Shown here piece by piece: positions 48,343 through 55,962 of a stretch of DNA of 64,000 bases. Position 1 is the first letter of the stretch, and each line of letters starts with the position of its first letter. The notes beneath the pieces were generated by a model, which saw nothing but the letters and a program-made list of their open reading frames with translations, did not search any database and was not told the origin of the DNA. The position numbers were made by a program, and so were the translations under genes. Source of the stretch: Nitrospirales bacterium LBB_01 (lineage in GTDB: Bacteria > Nitrospirota > Thermodesulfovibrionia > Thermodesulfovibrionales > Magnetobacteriaceae); the NCBI GenBank assembly GCA_004376055.2, contig CP049016.1:2356001-2420000 (forward strand), written 5' to 3'.

Positions 48343-50094
48343 TTACTTTTTAGGTGACATAGTCATTAGAAATCTGATGATATGAACCAGAGCACCTTTG
48401 ACGGTAGTGACTTCACTGGTGAGCCCTGCGAGTTTACCTTCTACGGCGGACTGGACGTCTTTAGTCTGACTTTTTACGATTGATATATCGTTGGAAAGTG
48501 ATGAGAGTGAGTCTAACTTATTTTCAAGATCGGTTAGAATTCTACTGTTTATGCTTGCGATTTTTTCATAATCTATTCTTTCAACGGTGAGTTTATCGTA
48601 ATCTATTTTTTCGTATTCACCTGTTGATTGCACTCTTTGACTTACTGCAAGGAAATTCTTCAGTACCGATACAACATCTCCCATCTGTTTTGAAAGCTCG
48701 GTAAGTTTTCCCTCAATTGCAGCTGTGTTTTCAGCGGTGTTGGTCATGGGCATAGATACACCAGCAGGGTCGCTTTTTAGGGTCGCTAATTTATTCTCAA
48801 AACCTCTTAGTGCAGATTTTATAGCATTATCAATTCTTTCATAATCGACAGTTTCAAAATTTACCTTAGCGTAATCGCCCGCTTGACCGCTCTTACCGGC
48901 GCCTGTGGCAAGGAGAGCGTTTAGCACTGATACCATGTTTCCGGTCTGTTTTGAAAGCGCTGAGAGCTTACTTTCTAAGCCTGTCTGATTCTGTTCAATC
49001 CGGTTAATTACGGATGGAATCTCCCTGAGAGCTGAGGCAAGCGGCACCAATAACTTCTCAAAGTCCCTCATAGCGCCTTTGCTGACGTCGGCGATTTTTT
49101 CATAATCTATCGTATCAAAATTTAGTTTAGCCAAATCTGCTTTACTCATACTGCCCTTATGAGCAGCTCCAACAGCAAGAAGTCCTTTTAAGGCAGACAG
49201 CATATCCACAGTGTGTTTTGAAAGCCCTGTGAGTTTACCCTCTACTGCTGCCTGATTTTTCTCAAGCCGGCCTATAAGCGATGGAATGTCTCTTAACGCA
49301 ACAGTAAGCGGCACAAACCGCCGTTCAAAGTCTTGCAGGGCATCCTTATTAGCGCTGACTATTTTATCGTAGTCTGTTTTTTGAGCGCCAATGTTGACCG
49401 TCGCAGCAATCAGAGTGCTGATAGCTTTTGAAATCCCAGCTATCTGTTTTGAGAGATTGGAAAGTGCCGACTCATTAACAGCCTGACCTATATCAGAGCC
49501 GCCTCTCAGTTCATGATGAGTATCACGAGAAACTGATAAAAACGCAGCCAGCCGCTTCTCGAAATCTCTCAGGGTTTCTTTTGTGGCATCAGAAATTTTC
49601 TCGTAATCTATTTTTTCATGTTCTCTTCTTACATAGTTTATTGTTGGGAGAGTCTGTCCCAGTCCATCAGCACTCTGACGGCTGCTAAGAGACTCTAAAA
49701 CTTCCATCAACTGCTCAGACAGGGTGGTTATCTTTTCCTCAATACCGGTCTGATTTTTCTCAAGCTGTTTCTTAAGTATTGACAAGTCACGGAGGATTGT
49801 TGAAAACACATCGTATTTGGTTTCAAATTCTTTGAAGTTTTTTTTGCCTGAACTAAGTATCTTTTCAAGATCTTTTATCTTTAAATCTAATCTGCCCTTT
49901 GTATTTAACTTTACACCCCTGCTAAAAACGGGGCCGACTGAACCCTTTGGCTTCAACACGGTAACAGCATCCGCTGCTTTTGAAACAAGACCTGCCGTTG
50001 CGTCATAAGCGGTTACAATGGCTGAGCCGCTTTTATTTAACGCCTTTGCCAATCCGCCGGCTACAAGCGATCTTCTTTCCGATGTATCATCCAT
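48343..50094 (-). CDS. Magnetosome-cluster repeat protein with N-terminal cap shared with the HEAT protein
   Basis: The 583-residue protein has no signal peptide. Residues 8-44 form a cap (RSLVAGGLAKALNKSGSAIV, then YDATAGLVSKAADAV) nearly the same as residues 9-45 of the HEAT-repeat protein encoded at 54649-55962. From about residue 86 on come about six units of 75-90 residues, starting near 162, 240, 328, 416 and 507, with DYEKI...(K)...(R)DFE..L and a helical ...IE.KL..LS.Q part; the same repeat occurs in the adjacent VWA protein. All units look helical and coiled-coil forming. The ATG overlaps the VWA gene end by eight bases after AGGAGG, so translation is coupled. It is the last gene of the cluster. 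No named family recognised; a scaffold role is inferred. Confidence 0.85.
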   Translation of the reverse strand: MDDTSERRSLVAGGLAKALNKSGSAIVTAYDATAGLVSKAADAVTVLKPKGSVGPVFSRGVKLNTKGRLDLKIKDLEKILSSGKKNFKEFETKYDVFSTILRDLSILKKQLEKNQTGIEEKITTLSEQLMEVLESLSSRQSADGLGQTLPTINYVRREHEKIDYEKISDATKETLRDFEKRLAAFLSVSRDTHHELRGGSDIGQAVNESALSNLSKQIAGISKAISTLIAATVNIGAQKTDYDKIVSANKDALQDFERRFVPLTVALRDIPSLIGRLEKNQAAVEGKLTGLSKHTVDMLSALKGLLAVGAAHKGSMSKADLAKLNFDTIDYEKIADVSKGAMRDFEKLLVPLASALREIPSVINRIEQNQTGLESKLSALSKQTGNMVSVLNALLATGAGKSGQAGDYAKVNFETVDYERIDNAIKSALRGFENKLATLKSDPAGVSMPMTNTAENTAAIEGKLTELSKQMGDVVSVLKNFLAVSQRVQSTGEYEKIDYDKLTVERIDYEKIASINSRILTDLENKLDSLSSLSNDISIVKSQTKDVQSAVEGKLAGLTSEVTTVKGALVHIIRFLMTMSPKK

Positions 50095-52531
50095 TAATTC
50101 CTCCTGTCTTAAAACTCAATATGGTGTCTTTTAGTGATGCCATTTCCGCTGAAAGTCCAGCAAGTTTACCCTCTATGTCGCTCTGATGCTGCATAAATGC
50201 GTTTTTCATAGGAGGAATTCCTGCGATAAATTTGGACACTGCCTCAAGCCTCATCTCAAAATCTTTCGTCGTTTCCTTGTTAGCATCGGCGATTTTTTCA
50301 TAATCTATTTTCTCTTGTGCGGTCATTTCAACTACAGGCTTTTGAACACTCTGTTTAAGCTCGGAAATTTGTTCAGCAAGATTTGTCAGTTTGTCTTCTA
50401 TATCACTTTGATGCTGTACAAAGGCGTTCCTCATTGGCGGAATTCCGGTTATAAATGAAGACACTGCTTCAAGCCGCTTCTCAAAATCTTTCATCGTTTC
50501 CTTGTTAGCTTCAGCGATTTTTTCATAATCTATTTTCTCTTGTTCTACCATTCCGTCATCGGTACTATGAGCACTTTGTTTAAGCTCAGAAACTTGCTCA
50601 GCAAGACTCAAAAGCATACCCTCTATATCAAGTTGGTGCTTTTCAAAAGCATTCCTCATTGGCGGAATTCCGGTTATAAATGTGGACACTGCCTCAAGCC
50701 GCTTCTCGAAATCCTTCATCATATCCTTGTTAGCATCGGCGATTTTCTCATAGTCTATTTTCTCTTGTGCTGTCATTTCAACTACAGGCTTTTGAACACT
50801 CTGTTTAAGCTCGGAAATTTGTTCAGCAAGATTTGTCAGTTTGGCTTCTATATCACTTTGATGCTGCACAAAGGCGTTCCTCATTGGCGGAATTCCGGTT
50901 ATAAATGTGGACACCGCCTCAAGCCGCTTCTCGAAATCCTTTATCGTTTCCTTTGTAGCAATTACTCCTGACAAAGTCTCAAGTTTAGAGCTAAAGTTAC
51001 CAGTAAGCGCCTTTTTAAATTCTTCAATTGTCTCAATAAGTGTTTCTTTCACCTTAGCCTGAGTTTTACCAACGCCGTCAGTCAGCTCATTTTTAATTGA
51101 CTCTCTTATTCCCTCTGAAATTTTTTCAAAAGCTCCTGTCCCTGACTTTACAGTGTCAGTAATGACTGCGATGTCTTGCTGCAAAGCCGCATACTCCTGA
51201 CTCTTTGTCTCCCTGACATTAGAGATTGCATTTTTTGTTTCCATCTCAAGCCTTCTCAGAATGTTTTTTAAGTTTTCCTGAACGCCCGCTACAAATTCGC
51301 TCATCAAGCTGTGAATAAATGTCTCAACACCATCATTATCCGTTATTACCAGTTCCGCTCTCTTTATTTCAGCAACTCCGGCAGTGACCTTTTTGAGCTC
51401 ATCCTGTATGGCTTTAATTGTTTGCCCAAGTGATGTATTGTCAGATTTTTTGTCTTTTCTTAAAAGCAATATAATTACTATTACAAACAGTAACACAATA
51501 ATTATCAACAAAAACAGCCACTGATTGCTTTGCACCGACTCCTTAAAAGAGGACTCAGTAACGGCAGCCACCTCTTTGGGTTTTGACTCAACGGCAGCAC
51601 GAGGTGTGCTCTCAGGCGCATTGGCACTTAGTGAAGGTATAACAAACTCCTTCTTTAGTTCGATGTCTTGTCCCTGATACTTCAGTTTAACAAGACACAC
51701 ATGTTTGCCGGTCGGCCCTGAGTAGTTGTAATCTATCAAATATTTAACCCGTTTAGGAACGAAAACCGCCCTTGAAAGACTCTGAATCTCCTCAAATCCT
51801 GGATTAACCAGCATAGTGCCTTTTGTTAGTTTTGTAATGTTGTCAAGTAGTTCAAAGTACTGACGGTGCTTGCCATATATCATTACATGTATAGGAATAT
51901 TAGGTTTTCTTACCTCTTTCATGAGAGTCTCAATCGGCATATCGCTATGGTCGTCCATAGCGTCTGTAATCACAAGCATAGATGTTTTTGCCGTTTTAGA
52001 CTTTTCGGCTAATTTAATTCCCTCTGAAATGCCGTCATAAAGCAGCGTTTTTTGCTCAAGTGCCGTTAGTGAATCTATCTTACTTGTGAGGACAGATTTA
52101 TCATCGGAAAGATTCTCAATCACTTTTATATAGTTTCCAAAAGTCATAAGAGTTACATAGTTACCGTCAGAAAAAAGAGCTAACAGGTAGGAGGCGTATT
52201 TTTTTACGTTTGCAATAGGAATACCGTTCATGCTCCGACTGACGTCAATTGCCAAAATAAGAGACGTGGACTCATCGTTAACCGCTGTTAATGAAAAATC
52301 ACCGATGGTTTGGTCATCTACTGTAACACTTACATTTTCCTTCTTTAACGGAACATCCGTATCGTTAGAGACCACTACAGCTGCCACTTTGGCAAAATCT
52401 CTAACTTTTACATCGTTAATTTCAAACGGAGCCTTCTTAGGATTGGTAGCACTGACTGAGGCAACCACTACCGACACGACCATCACCAACACCACTGCCG
52501 CTATAGCAGTAAGAACCACCCTTTTTTGCAT
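50087..52531 (-). CDS. VWA-domain transmembrane protein with a cytoplasmic tail of four 75-residue repeats
   Basis: The 814-residue protein has an N-terminal membrane segment (about 6-28), a von Willebrand factor A domain (about 88-265) with the MIDAS residues D96-x-S98-x-S100, T162 and D190, a second membrane helix (338-357), then a long helical region (about 365-515) and four tandem 75-residue repeats (515-589, 590-664, 665-739, 740-814). The repeats read EKIDYEKIADANKET.KDFE and (T)GIPPMRNAF..HQSDIE.KL. By topology the VWA domain lies outside the cytoplasm, in the periplasm or magnetosome lumen, and the repeats inside the cell. It is the penultimate gene of the cluster. VWA domains bind protein ligands through a metal; a partner here is unknown. 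This is not a standard Mam protein. Confidence 0.88.
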   Translation of the reverse strand: MQKRVVLTAIAAVVLVMVVSVVVASVSATNPKKAPFEINDVKVRDFAKVAAVVVSNDTDVPLKKENVSVTVDDQTIGDFSLTAVNDESTSLILAIDVSRSMNGIPIANVKKYASYLLALFSDGNYVTLMTFGNYIKVIENLSDDKSVLTSKIDSLTALEQKTLLYDGISEGIKLAEKSKTAKTSMLVITDAMDDHSDMPIETLMKEVRKPNIPIHVMIYGKHRQYFELLDNITKLTKGTMLVNPGFEEIQSLSRAVFVPKRVKYLIDYNYSGPTGKHVCLVKLKYQGQDIELKKEFVIPSLSANAPESTPRAAVESKPKEVAAVTESSFKESVQSNQWLFLLIIIVLLFVIVIILLLRKDKKSDNTSLGQTIKAIQDELKKVTAGVAEIKRAELVITDNDGVETFIHSLMSEFVAGVQENLKNILRRLEMETKNAISNVRETKSQEYAALQQDIAVITDTVKSGTGAFEKISEGIRESIKNELTDGVGKTQAKVKETLIETIEEFKKALTGNFSSKLETLSGVIATKETIKDFEKRLEAVSTFITGIPPMRNAFVQHQSDIEAKLTNLAEQISELKQSVQKPVVEMTAQEKIDYEKIADANKDMMKDFEKRLEAVSTFITGIPPMRNAFEKHQLDIEGMLLSLAEQVSELKQSAHSTDDGMVEQEKIDYEKIAEANKETMKDFEKRLEAVSSFITGIPPMRNAFVQHQSDIEDKLTNLAEQISELKQSVQKPVVEMTAQEKIDYEKIADANKETTKDFEMRLEAVSKFIAGIPPMKNAFMQHQSDIEGKLAGLSAEMASLKDTILSFKTGGING
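50090..50989 (-). repeat. Four in-frame 225-bp tandem repeats in the VWA gene
   Basis: The marker gc(c/t)tcaagcc recurs at 50241, 50466, 50691 and 50916, exactly 225 bp apart. The four units fill the end of the gene without remainder. The first unit in protein order has lost its first 15 residues' similarity. Units 1 and 3 share the end VEMTAQ and VQHQSDIE, while unit 2 differs (STDDGMVEQ). Confidence 0.9.
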
Positions 52532-52700: not shown

Positions 52701-53276
52701 TTAGTTTATATGGTAGTTGTGCATTATCTTAGATAACGAAACCTTGCTTTCCACCTCTTTAAAAGCCTTATGTACCTGTTTTAAAATAACATCGTATTCA
52801 CTAAACTTTGGCATGATGTGCTTCTTTTTTCTCTCTATAGAGTTTAAAACATTCTGGATTTCATTAAACTTTGTTACTACTATTTCCTTGTCGTCATTTA
52901 CCTGAGAAAGCTCATCCTTGAGATGGTTTTTAACACCAACTGTGTTTTGCAGATCCTCTTCTACGATTTTTATATTTCCCTTGTAGCGGTTTATCTCCTC
53001 AATTACACGCTCCTTCTTGTCTTGTAAATCGCCTATTGCACTGCCATAACCCTCGACTCGGGACTCCTCATGCTCAAACTCCTCTTTAGTTCTCTTTATA
53101 ATGACATCAAGTCCCTCGTTTTGCCCCTTCAGCGCCCTCAGCTTCTCTTTTAATTCAGCGTTTGTGTGAGTCAGCTCTTCTTTGCTTTTAGCAAGCACCT
53201 TTAGCTCATCTATAAGTTCATGAACCTCTTCAAACACACTCTTTTCAGAGTACATATCATCCATTAGCTCATCCAT
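52701..53276 (-). CDS. Coiled-coil protein of the magnetosome cluster (191 aa)
   Basis: Nearly the whole of this 191-residue protein is predicted coiled coil, rich in Glu, Lys and Leu with Asn/Asp at breaks (for example VHELIDELKVLAKSKEELTH and NKVVDIII-type segments). No signal peptide, membrane segment or known catalytic motif is visible. It lies between the 242-residue coiled-coil gene and the VWA gene, 11 bases after the former, so it is part of the cluster. Such proteins are the kind of small coiled-coil (Man/Mad-type) genes of Nitrospirota clusters; I cannot give it a number. Confidence 0.75.
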   Translation of the reverse strand: MDELMDDMYSEKSVFEEVHELIDELKVLAKSKEELTHTNAELKEKLRALKGQNEGLDVIIKRTKEEFEHEESRVEGYGSAIGDLQDKKERVIEEINRYKGNIKIVEEDLQNTVGVKNHLKDELSQVNDDKEIVVTKFNEIQNVLNSIERKKKHIMPKFSEYDVILKQVHKAFKEVESKVSLSKIMHNYHIN

Positions 53277-54648: not shown

Positions 54649-55962
54649 CTACTCACCCTCAGAGGCGGTCTCCGGCTCCTGAGCATCTTGTGGTGCTGCA
54701 GTTTCAGTAGAAACCGATTCGGTTACTAAAGGGGATAACTCAAGGGTCTTCACCCCAAGCCACCATCTCCGTAACTTATCTATCTCAGAGGCAAGCACAT
54801 CACCTGTGAGGTCAAGATTGAAAGACACATACTCGCCGGTTATGGTCTTTATGGCCTCAAGCGCCTTTTCTCGTATATCGCGTGACTCATCGGTAAGAGT
54901 GCGAATAAGGGGTGAGACTGCCGCCTTGTCTTTTATCGTTGAAAGAGCCGTTATTGCCGCTCTTTTTACTCCCTCTTCCCTGTCGTGAAGCGCTTGTACA
55001 AGGGAGGGCACTGTATCAGAAGAATCTCTCCAGCCAAGAAATGTTGCTGCTGTTTTTCTGACCTCCTGATGCTCATCCTTTAGCGCATTGAGAAACACAG
55101 GGATTGCGTCATTATCATCGGCAAGCTTATAAAGCCCCCGCAAACTGCCCACTCTCACCCTGAAATTGGGAAACTTTGCTGCCTCTTTTAAAAATGGAAT
55201 GGCTGACGTATCACCCAGATTTATCAGTGCATTTATTATATCTGAAATCAGGTATGGATTTTTGTACCCAGCTGCCTCTATCAGAATTGGCACTGCAGAT
55301 TTAAATCCGAAGCGTCCAAGCTCTGACACTGCCATTATCTTTATTTCCATCTCAACGTCAAGAATATCTCCTGCAATTTTAGCAAATATCTCACGCTCTG
55401 AGTCCGTCAGGAACTCTCTGCCGCGTATTGCCCTCTGTATGGCTGCCTCCACAGCGGCCGATACTTTGCCCTCATCCGGTTTACCCTTTTTATTTATCGA
55501 ACTGATTGAAGATTTTGACTGACGTCTCTGTGCCTCTTCCTCTTTTTCAAGCTCTTTGAGCTCTAATTGCCTGGCTCTTAACCGCTCTATCTCGCGTTCA
55601 AACTCCTTAACCTGCCTGACAATTGCTCCTATATTTTCTGATTCTGCATCCTCTCCCTCAGCGCTAAGTCTCCCGACCTCTGCGTAGAGTTTCTTTACTT
55701 TACCTTCATAATCTTTAATTTTGGCATCCAGACTCTTTCTACTTTCACCAGGTTTTGTAAATTTCAGAGAAGAGAACATATTGTCAGGAAGCTTTGGCAG
55801 ACTTGGCATTCTTGGCGTAAAGTTTACTACAGTGTTTGCCGCCTTTGACACAAGACCTGCCGTTGTGTCATACATGTCTAAAATCGCAGAACCGCTTGCG
55901 TTTAATGCCTTTGCAAACCCATCAAGTATAACCGATTTTCCGTGTGTTGATTTATCGTCCAT
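54649..55962 (-). CDS. HEAT-repeat protein of the magnetosome cluster with shared N-terminal cap
   Basis: The 437-residue protein has the cap (residues 9-45, KSVILDGFAKALNASGSAIL, then YDTTAGLVSKAANTV) shared with the 48343-50094 product, with a second shared motif LDAKIKDYE (about 78-86) against LDLKIKDLE. A coiled coil follows (about 80-150), then six or so HEAT-like repeats (about 195-375; for example EIKIMAVSELGRFGFKSAVP and VKRAAITALSTIKDKAAV) and an acidic tail. HEAT repeats bind other proteins. No signal peptide is present. The gene lies between the TauE-like gene and coiled-coil genes in the cluster. Some Nitrospirota-specific magnetosome genes encode such proteins, but I cannot name it with confidence. 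Confidence 0.85.
   Translation of the reverse strand: MDDKSTHGKSVILDGFAKALNASGSAILDMYDTTAGLVSKAANTVVNFTPRMPSLPKLPDNMFSSLKFTKPGESRKSLDAKIKDYEGKVKKLYAEVGRLSAEGEDAESENIGAIVRQVKEFEREIERLRARQLELKELEKEEEAQRRQSKSSISSINKKGKPDEGKVSAAVEAAIQRAIRGREFLTDSEREIFAKIAGDILDVEMEIKIMAVSELGRFGFKSAVPILIEAAGYKNPYLISDIINALINLGDTSAIPFLKEAAKFPNFRVRVGSLRGLYKLADDNDAIPVFLNALKDEHQEVRKTAATFLGWRDSSDTVPSLVQALHDREEGVKRAAITALSTIKDKAAVSPLIRTLTDESRDIREKALEAIKTITGEYVSFNLDLTGDVLASEIDKLRRWWLGVKTLELSPLVTESVSTETAAPQDAQEPETASEGE

What the first reader, a model, noticed from the sequence alone, without database searches (positions are those of the whole stretch)
48343..52531. One repeat family shared by two adjacent proteins on opposite sides of membrane contact
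The VWA protein tail has four 75-residue units with DYEKIA..NK...KDFE.RLEAVS, and the soluble neighbour has about six more divergent units of the same pattern (DYEKI..A.K..LRDFE.L). This seems to be a new repeat domain, one set fixed to a membrane and the other soluble, which may pair with each other.
Basis: seen in the sequence. Interest (0 to 1): 0.85.

Follow-up and report, generated by a model that had tools for sequence, protein, structure and literature searches.

The report
Twin repeat proteins beside magnetosome genes
Next to the genes with which a magnetic bacterium builds its internal compass lie two undescribed proteins, one anchored in a membrane and one soluble, that share the same repeated rod-like unit and, across the whole bacterial family, the same tail-end piece, so they probably work as a two-part tether that helps hold the magnetic crystal chains in place.

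Summary
Profile and shuffle tests show that the four 75-residue units in the VWA-protein tail and the six units in the soluble neighbour are homologous (159-201 bits; phase-keeping shuffles at most 12 bits, other coiled-coil proteins of the cluster at most 6). The context changes the meaning. The window is, by inference, Ca. Magnetomonas plexicatena LBB01 (magnetotactic Nitrospirota), and the two genes follow mad26 at the edge of the magnetosome gene cluster, outside its published limits.

The repeat itself occurs in one genus only. VWA unit number varies (4, about 10, 7, 7) while the soluble protein keeps six positions, which argues against one-to-one unit pairing. Conserved across six genera is a ~34-residue C-terminal cap, mostly on VWA(MIDAS)-TM-coiled-coil proteins. 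Four genera also encode a soluble coiled-coil protein ending in the same cap. Here the soluble protein also carries the N-terminal module of Mad23, a chain-organising protein in strain RS-1.

Most likely: a membrane anchor and a magnetosome-side partner forming a chain tether, working like McaA/McaB. Function is inferred. McaA's sequence could not be obtained, and the structure models of the tails are poor.

The parts
50087..52531 (-). VWA-TM-coiled-coil protein, 814 aa (membrane-anchored partner)
   Evidence: ORF; Pfam VWA 1.4e-10; orthologs in G001-G003 and VWA-TM relatives in 14 of 19 family genomes
52448..52531 (-). N-terminal hydrophobic segment / signal (aa 1-28)
   Evidence: hydropathy (aa 5-23, mean 3.15); helix H2-28 in model
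51776..52267 (-). VWA domain (aa 89-252) with complete MIDAS DxSxS..T..D
   Evidence: Pfam; MIDAS columns D96 S98 S100 T162 D190 invariant in 14 sequences; confident model and PDB VWA matches
51461..51517 (-). single transmembrane helix (aa 339-357)
   Evidence: hydropathy maximum 3.98; same place in the relatives
50981..51439 (-). helical linker (aa 365-517), not repeated
   Evidence: model
50756..50980 (-). repeat unit V1 (lacks DYEKI)
   Evidence: HMM
50531..50755 (-). repeat unit V2
   Evidence: HMM; TRF
50306..50530 (-). repeat unit V3
   Evidence: HMM; TRF
50090..50305 (-). repeat unit V4, with truncated C-terminal cap
   Evidence: HMM; deletion relative to G002; only cap positions 1-21 of 34 remain
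48343..50094 (-). soluble repeat protein, 583 aa
   Evidence: ORF; orthologs in all four genomes of the genus
49945..50094 (-). N-terminal Mad23-type module (aa 1-50)
   Evidence: BLASTP to the Mad23-type protein E 1e-13; the same module opens Mad23 in other genera and families
49645..49872 (-). repeat unit S1
   Evidence: HMM
49378..49608 (-). repeat unit S2
   Evidence: HMM
49147..49374 (-). repeat unit S3
   Evidence: HMM
48880..49107 (-). repeat unit S4
   Evidence: HMM
48619..48846 (-). repeat unit S5 (partly deleted in G002, G003)
   Evidence: HMM; alignment
48346..48573 (-). repeat unit S6, ending in the intact C-terminal cap (48346-48447)
   Evidence: HMM (cap E 1.4e-14)
52701..53276 (-). 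mad26-type coiled-coil gene, last gene of the published cluster
   Evidence: order matches PMC9376291; found in 19 of 19 family genomes and in none of 21 outside
54649..55962 (-). mad23-type gene (HEAT), carrier of the shared N-terminal module
   Evidence: Pfam HEAT_2 2.6e-39

Best explanation
The two proteins are an accessory magnetosome-chain tether of Ca. Magnetobacteriaceae that works like McaA/McaB. (1) The VWA protein sits in the inner or magnetosome membrane; its VWA/MIDAS domain lies outside the cytoplasm and could be positioned by a metal-dependent ligand (topology predicted, role inferred). (2) Its tail is a kinked coiled-coil rod in the cytoplasm, lengthened or shortened by gain and loss of 75-aa units (unit numbers shown, spacer role inferred). 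(3) The soluble partner is the same kind of rod. It begins with the Mad23 N-terminal module (homology shown), which probably directs it to magnetosomes or to the Mad23/25/26 network (inferred), and ends with the cap shared with VWA-TM proteins (shown). (4) The two are probably joined through the shared cap and perhaps the repeats, so that chain bundles are tied to the envelope (inferred). Across the family the conserved parts are the VWA-TM head and the C-terminal cap; the rod between them evolves freely.
For: Order mad23-24-25-26-VWA in all four genomes of the genus, with the soluble gene directly after VWA in the three where the contig continues. In XYC a VWA-TM-coil gene and a soluble coil gene with two caps are adjacent inside a Mad28-type / ParA / FeoB magnetosome set. 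The cap is found in 17 of 19 family genomes and in only one other, weakly, of a 296-genome phylum sample. A TM-less protein ending in the cap exists in four genera. The soluble N-terminus is the Mad23 module. MIDAS invariant. McaA has the same SP-VWA-TM-cytoplasmic plan, needs its MIDAS for localisation and binds McaB and MamK (PMC9512821, PMC13170167). Loss of mad23 disperses magnetosomes in RS-1 (PMC12748827). dN/dS like other magnetosome genes.
Against: In genera g2, g3 and g7 the VWA-TM gene is not near known magnetosome genes; in g3 it lies beside a TerY-like VWA, PP2C and kinase set. No soluble cap protein was found in g2 or g7. LBB01's own VWA protein has lost the last third of the cap. 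No interaction, localisation or phenotype data exist. The structure models of both tails are low confidence. Homology to McaA was not tested, because no McaA sequence could be reached.
Confidence: 0.5

Rival explanations
1. The VWA-TM-coil protein and its soluble partner belong to a general envelope or signalling system (cell shape, or a TerY/PP2C/kinase-type stress response) that merely lies beside the magnetosome cluster in this genus.
For: In the g3 genomes the VWA-TM gene is followed by TerY-like VWA, PP2C, Ser/Thr kinase and TPR genes; in g2 and g7 there is no link to magnetosome genes; dynamin-like neighbours occur in g2 and g3.
Against: Restricted to a family in which every sampled genome has mad26; linked to magnetosome genes at two different sites in two genera; the soluble protein carries the Mad23 module, seen elsewhere only on Mad23.
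Confidence: 0.3
2. The repeats of the two proteins pair unit by unit to form a hetero-rod.
For: Units are homologous, heptad-patterned (period about 3.5) and under purifying selection; the genes overlap, so co-production is likely.
Against: Unit numbers do not co-vary (VWA 4/about 10/7/7; soluble protein six positions throughout, one partly deleted in two species); VWA units are recently amplified within species while soluble-protein units are old and position-specific; other genera have both proteins without the repeat.
Confidence: 0.15
3. The shared units are only the by-product of exchange between neighbouring genes (a spacer copied from one to the other) and carry no interaction.
For: The repeats are genus-specific and lie in adjacent genes; the terminal VWA unit of G001 groups with the terminal units of the soluble proteins (95/83).
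Against: Purifying selection on the soluble protein's units (dN/dS 0.124); soluble cap proteins of other genera share the cap without being adjacent to the VWA gene, so the likeness is not only local copying.
Confidence: 0.15

Closest known systems
McaA (Magnetospirillum magneticum AMB-1)
   Same: Signal segment, VWA with intact MIDAS, one TM, cytoplasmic C-terminal region; magnetotactic host; small partner gene (PMC9512821, PMC13170167)
   Different: McaA tail has a conserved 530 region, and tandem 75-aa units are not reported; mcaA/mcaB were reported only from Alpha- and Gammaproteobacteria (PMC9840458); sequence homology beyond VWA untested here
McaB
   Same: Cytoplasmic coiled coil, magnetosome-side partner of a VWA-TM protein
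   Different: McaB has an N-terminal TM; the soluble protein here has none and begins with the Mad23 module
Mad23 (deep-branching magnetotactic bacteria)
   Same: N-terminal ~50 residues homologous (E 1e-13)
   Different: The soluble protein lacks the HEAT repeats and has 75-aa coiled-coil units instead
Man1/4/5/6 and Mad20/24-26 coiled-coil magnetosome proteins
   Same: Coiled-coil rods in or beside the same cluster, suspected or shown to organise chains (PMC11344931, PMC12748827)
   Different: Those of this cluster show no sequence relation to the repeats (at most 6 bits); no VWA, TM or cap
ZorA / MotA-type proteins with a long cytoplasmic tail
   Same: Membrane protein with a long helical tail; weak PADLOC match 3.6e-7 in the coil only
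   Different: No MotA/ExbB domain; the match covers only the coiled-coil linker

Membership tests
McaA | SP - VWA - TM - cytoplasmic tail | tested here: met
   Pfam and hydropathy; predicted, not measured
McaA | intact MIDAS | tested here: met
   invariant DxSxS, T, D in 14 relatives
McaA | sequence homology to McaA including the 530 region | not testable with these tools
   no Magnetospirillum locus or McaA sequence could be reached
McaA | adjacent McaB-type partner with N-terminal TM | tested here: not met
   neighbour has no TM
McaA | localises to positive curvature, binds McaB and MamK | not testable with these tools
   needs experiments
Mad23 (soluble protein) | N-terminal Mad23 module | tested here: met
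Mad23 (soluble protein) | HEAT repeats | tested here: not met
   no HEAT match
VWA domain PF00092 (VWA protein) | score above the Pfam cut-off and VWA fold | tested here: met
   42.1 bits vs 23.8; fold matches
Baculo_PEP_C PF04513 (soluble protein) | score above cut-off in the protein and its orthologs | tested here: not met
   45.1 vs cut-off 38 in the window protein only; 21.0, 34.1, 29.2 in the three orthologs, at other units: coiled-coil cross-match

The most novel reading that the evidence does not exclude
A family-wide, undescribed two-part magnetosome tether of Nitrospirota: a VWA-TM anchor and a soluble, Mad23-tagged rod joined by a shared C-terminal cap, whose rod lengths are set by gain and loss of repeat units and thereby set how far chain bundles lie from the membrane.
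Probability: 0.25. Interest if true: 0.8.

Novelty: new variant of a known kind. Interest (0 to 1): 0.6.

Why it matters
How Nitrospirota magnetotactic bacteria arrange large numbers of magnetosomes into bundles is described as open (PMC11344931), and the published cluster is taken to run from man1 to mad26 (PMC8353452, PMC9376291). This finding adds two candidate genes just past that edge in one genus, a cap that marks further candidates elsewhere in the genomes of the family, and a link between the Mad23 chain machinery and a membrane anchor built like McaA. It suggests that a VWA-TM-cytoplasmic anchor is used for magnetosome positioning in a phylum where McaA was not reported, either by convergence or by deep common descent, and makes that testable.

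Tried and rejected
Coiled-coil composition alone: rejected. Pfam Baculo_PEP_C, Apolipoprotein and other coil hits: rejected, since orthologs hit different coil families at different units. Defence system (ZorA, LmuB): coil-only weak matches. PDB search with the soluble-protein profile: none. MamK and the Mad28-type actin were first confused; PDB matches to MamK put this right. Obtaining McaA for comparison through a MamK scan of genome contigs, viral contigs and plasmids: no Magnetospirillum locus came back. VWA matches in Desulfamplus and other magnetotactic genomes: no cap, weak identity, not counted as family members. AlphaFold of the soluble protein: pLDDT 36, helical only, not used for fold claims. 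Promoter/terminator scan: counts no higher than in shuffles, so it does not settle whether the pair is cotranscribed with mad26.

Full report
Check of the observation. Four units of 75 aa fill the end of the 814-aa VWA protein; at DNA level they are a 225-nt tandem array. Six more divergent units make up most of the 583-aa neighbour. BLASTP between the proteins gives E = 1.8e-36. Profiles built from the one set alone find the other set at 159 and 201 bits; sequences shuffled so that every residue keeps its heptad position reach at most 11.7 bits, and the other coiled-coil proteins of the same gene cluster at most 5.9. The relation is homology, not composition. Units typically open with DYEKI or a variant of it, have hydrophobic residues at a period near 3.5, and in the VWA tail have a GIPPM break between two helices (model, low confidence).

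Where it is. The neighbours upstream on the minus strand are MamB/MamA/MamE/MamQ-type genes, three coiled-coil genes in the man4-man6 positions, a TauE/SafE gene, a HEAT protein and three more coiled-coil genes. This is the order published for Ca. Magnetomonas plexicatena LBB01 (mad26, mad25, mad24, mad23, mamO-Cter, man6, man5, man4, mamQ, mamE ...), whose genome is one circle of 3.27 Mb (PMC9376291); the window's genome is one contig of 3,273,455 bases. The MamK of nDJH6bin1, which that paper puts in the same clade, is 97% identical. I therefore take the host to be LBB01 (inference). Two papers bound the cluster at mad26 (PMC9376291; PMC8353452). The two genes here lie immediately beyond it, and I found no description of them or of VWA proteins in Nitrospirota magnetosome clusters in the papers searched.

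Same genus. In all four genomes of the genus (G000-G003) the order mad23-mad24-mad25-mad26-VWA is kept, with the soluble gene directly after it wherever the contig continues; in G003 the contig ends just after the VWA gene and the soluble gene opens another contig. The VWA protein has 4 units in LBB01, about 10 in G001 (the assembly has a gap there) and 7 in G002 and G003. The soluble protein has the same six positions in all four, the fifth being partly deleted in G002 and G003. In a tree of units, soluble-protein units group largely by position across species, i.e. they are old and fixed, while most VWA units group within species or within close relatives, i.e. they were amplified recently (short sequences, many forks weak). 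If units paired one to one the numbers should change together; they do not. Both genes are under purifying selection like their magnetosome neighbours: dN/dS 0.15 for the VWA-TM part and 0.12 for the soluble protein's units, against 0.11, 0.11 and 0.16 for mad26, mad23 and man6.

The family. The 75-aa repeat was found nowhere else in a phylum sample of 296 genomes. But a VWA-TM protein with a long helical tail is present in 14 of the 19 genomes of the family, which all carry mad26 and of which 16 carry a detected mamK. Between genera the VWA part aligns at 28-37% identity (E 1e-36 to 1e-78) and the tails hardly at all. All relatives keep the MIDAS residues. Nearly all end in the same amphipathic, heptad-patterned stretch, for example VKDALVYIIRFLMSV, VRDALAEVMRFLLVLSE, IRETMSDIIRLLLLLSEK. 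I call it the cap. A cap profile of 34 positions finds 17 of 19 family genomes and, in the phylum sample, all nine family genomes matched strongly and only one weak hit (1.3e-5) outside.

The soluble partner across genera. The cap profile also finds, in four genera, a second protein without a transmembrane segment that ends in the cap: the soluble protein of this window; 335-356-aa proteins in Ca. Magnetominusculus (genus g3), in several genomes beside a dynamin-like GTPase; a 396-aa protein in G006; and a 247-aa protein with two caps in Ca. Magnetomicrobium XYC. In XYC it lies directly after the VWA-TM-coil gene, in a row Mad28-type actin, ParA/MinD, VWA-TM-coil, soluble coil, FeoB; mad28, mad29 and the feo genes are part of the published LBB01 magnetosome set. 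So the arrangement 'membrane VWA protein plus soluble coil sharing a C-terminal piece, among magnetosome genes' occurs at two unrelated places in two genera. Caps of soluble proteins from different genera resemble each other more (49%) than they resemble VWA caps (36%; 16 of 2000 label shuffles as high; few groups, indicative only), which suggests two old lineages.

The Mad23 module. The first part of the soluble protein matches the start of the neighbouring Mad23-type HEAT protein (47% identity over 87 columns, E 1e-13). Searching with the soluble proteins, every N-terminal match outside the genus is the start of a Mad23-type protein, including three genomes outside the family, beside TauE/SafE genes. 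In RS-1, loss of mad23 scatters magnetosomes and Mad23 protein enriches with late magnetosomes (PMC12748827). The module is thus a plausible address label for the magnetosome or its coiled-coil network.

How it most likely works. Shown: homologous units, genus restriction, variable unit number, cap, Mad23 module, gene neighbourhood. Predicted: SP-VWA-TM topology (two hydrophobic segments; confident VWA fold), helical tails. Inferred: the VWA domain, like that of McaA, positions the anchor through its metal site; the tail reaches into the cytoplasm; the soluble rod docks on magnetosomes by its Mad23 module; and the two join, most likely by the shared cap. LBB01 forms one bundle of two to three twisted strands along the cell axis, an architecture that would need such ties. 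Weak points: LBB01's own VWA protein has lost the end of its cap through a small deletion that also made the genes overlap; in three genera the VWA-TM gene lies away from magnetosome genes, in one of them beside TerY/PP2C/kinase genes; no soluble cap protein was found in two genera.

Comparison with known systems. The plan of the VWA protein is that of McaA (SP, VWA with MIDAS needed for localisation, TM, cytoplasmic region that binds McaB; PMC9512821, PMC13170167). I do not file it as McaA: the partner lacks McaB's transmembrane segment, and sequence homology could not be tested, since no McaA sequence could be reached with the tools. PMC9840458 reports mcaA and mcaB only from Alpha- and Gammaproteobacteria. 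It works like McaA/McaB in my reading; whether it descends from the same ancestor is open.

Verdict. The interpretation 'new repeat domain that may pair' is partly right: the repeat is new but young and genus-bound; the conserved thing is a two-protein arrangement with a shared cap, tied to magnetosome genes in two genera.

Noticed in passing
window 50087-50182: A ~60-nt deletion relative to G002 removed the last third of the VWA protein's cap and the intergenic gap, so that the two genes overlap by 8 nt.
   Followed up: yes
L264:2607-5141, L266:5918-8440, L040:9915-12515; LBB01 genome C1:2080320-2082854: Dynamin-like GTPases of 840-870 aa lie beside the soluble cap protein in Ca. Magnetominusculus and beside the VWA-TM-coil gene in one genome of genus g2; LBB01 has one copy about 10 kb from a third Mad28-type actin gene.
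   Followed up: partly
L225:7908-9131, L226:9512-10588, L005:10167-11414: LBB01 carries three Mad28-type actin genes; the paper mentions two mad28 in its magnetosome clusters.
   Followed up: partly
L041:7136-14658 and the same place in L043, L047: In Ca. Magnetominusculus the VWA-TM-coil gene is followed by a TerY-like VWA, a PP2C phosphatase, a Ser/Thr kinase and a TPR protein.
   Followed up: partly
L005:5729-7069: The Mad10-position protein has repeated glycine-spaced amphipathic stretches (GKAIAEGTVISGKAIAKA), which look like lipid-surface-binding helices.
   Followed up: no
L042:8643-12092 (Ca. Magnetobacterium casense MYR-1 genome): The cap is tandemly triplicated at the C-terminus of the VWA-TM-coil protein.
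   Followed up: no
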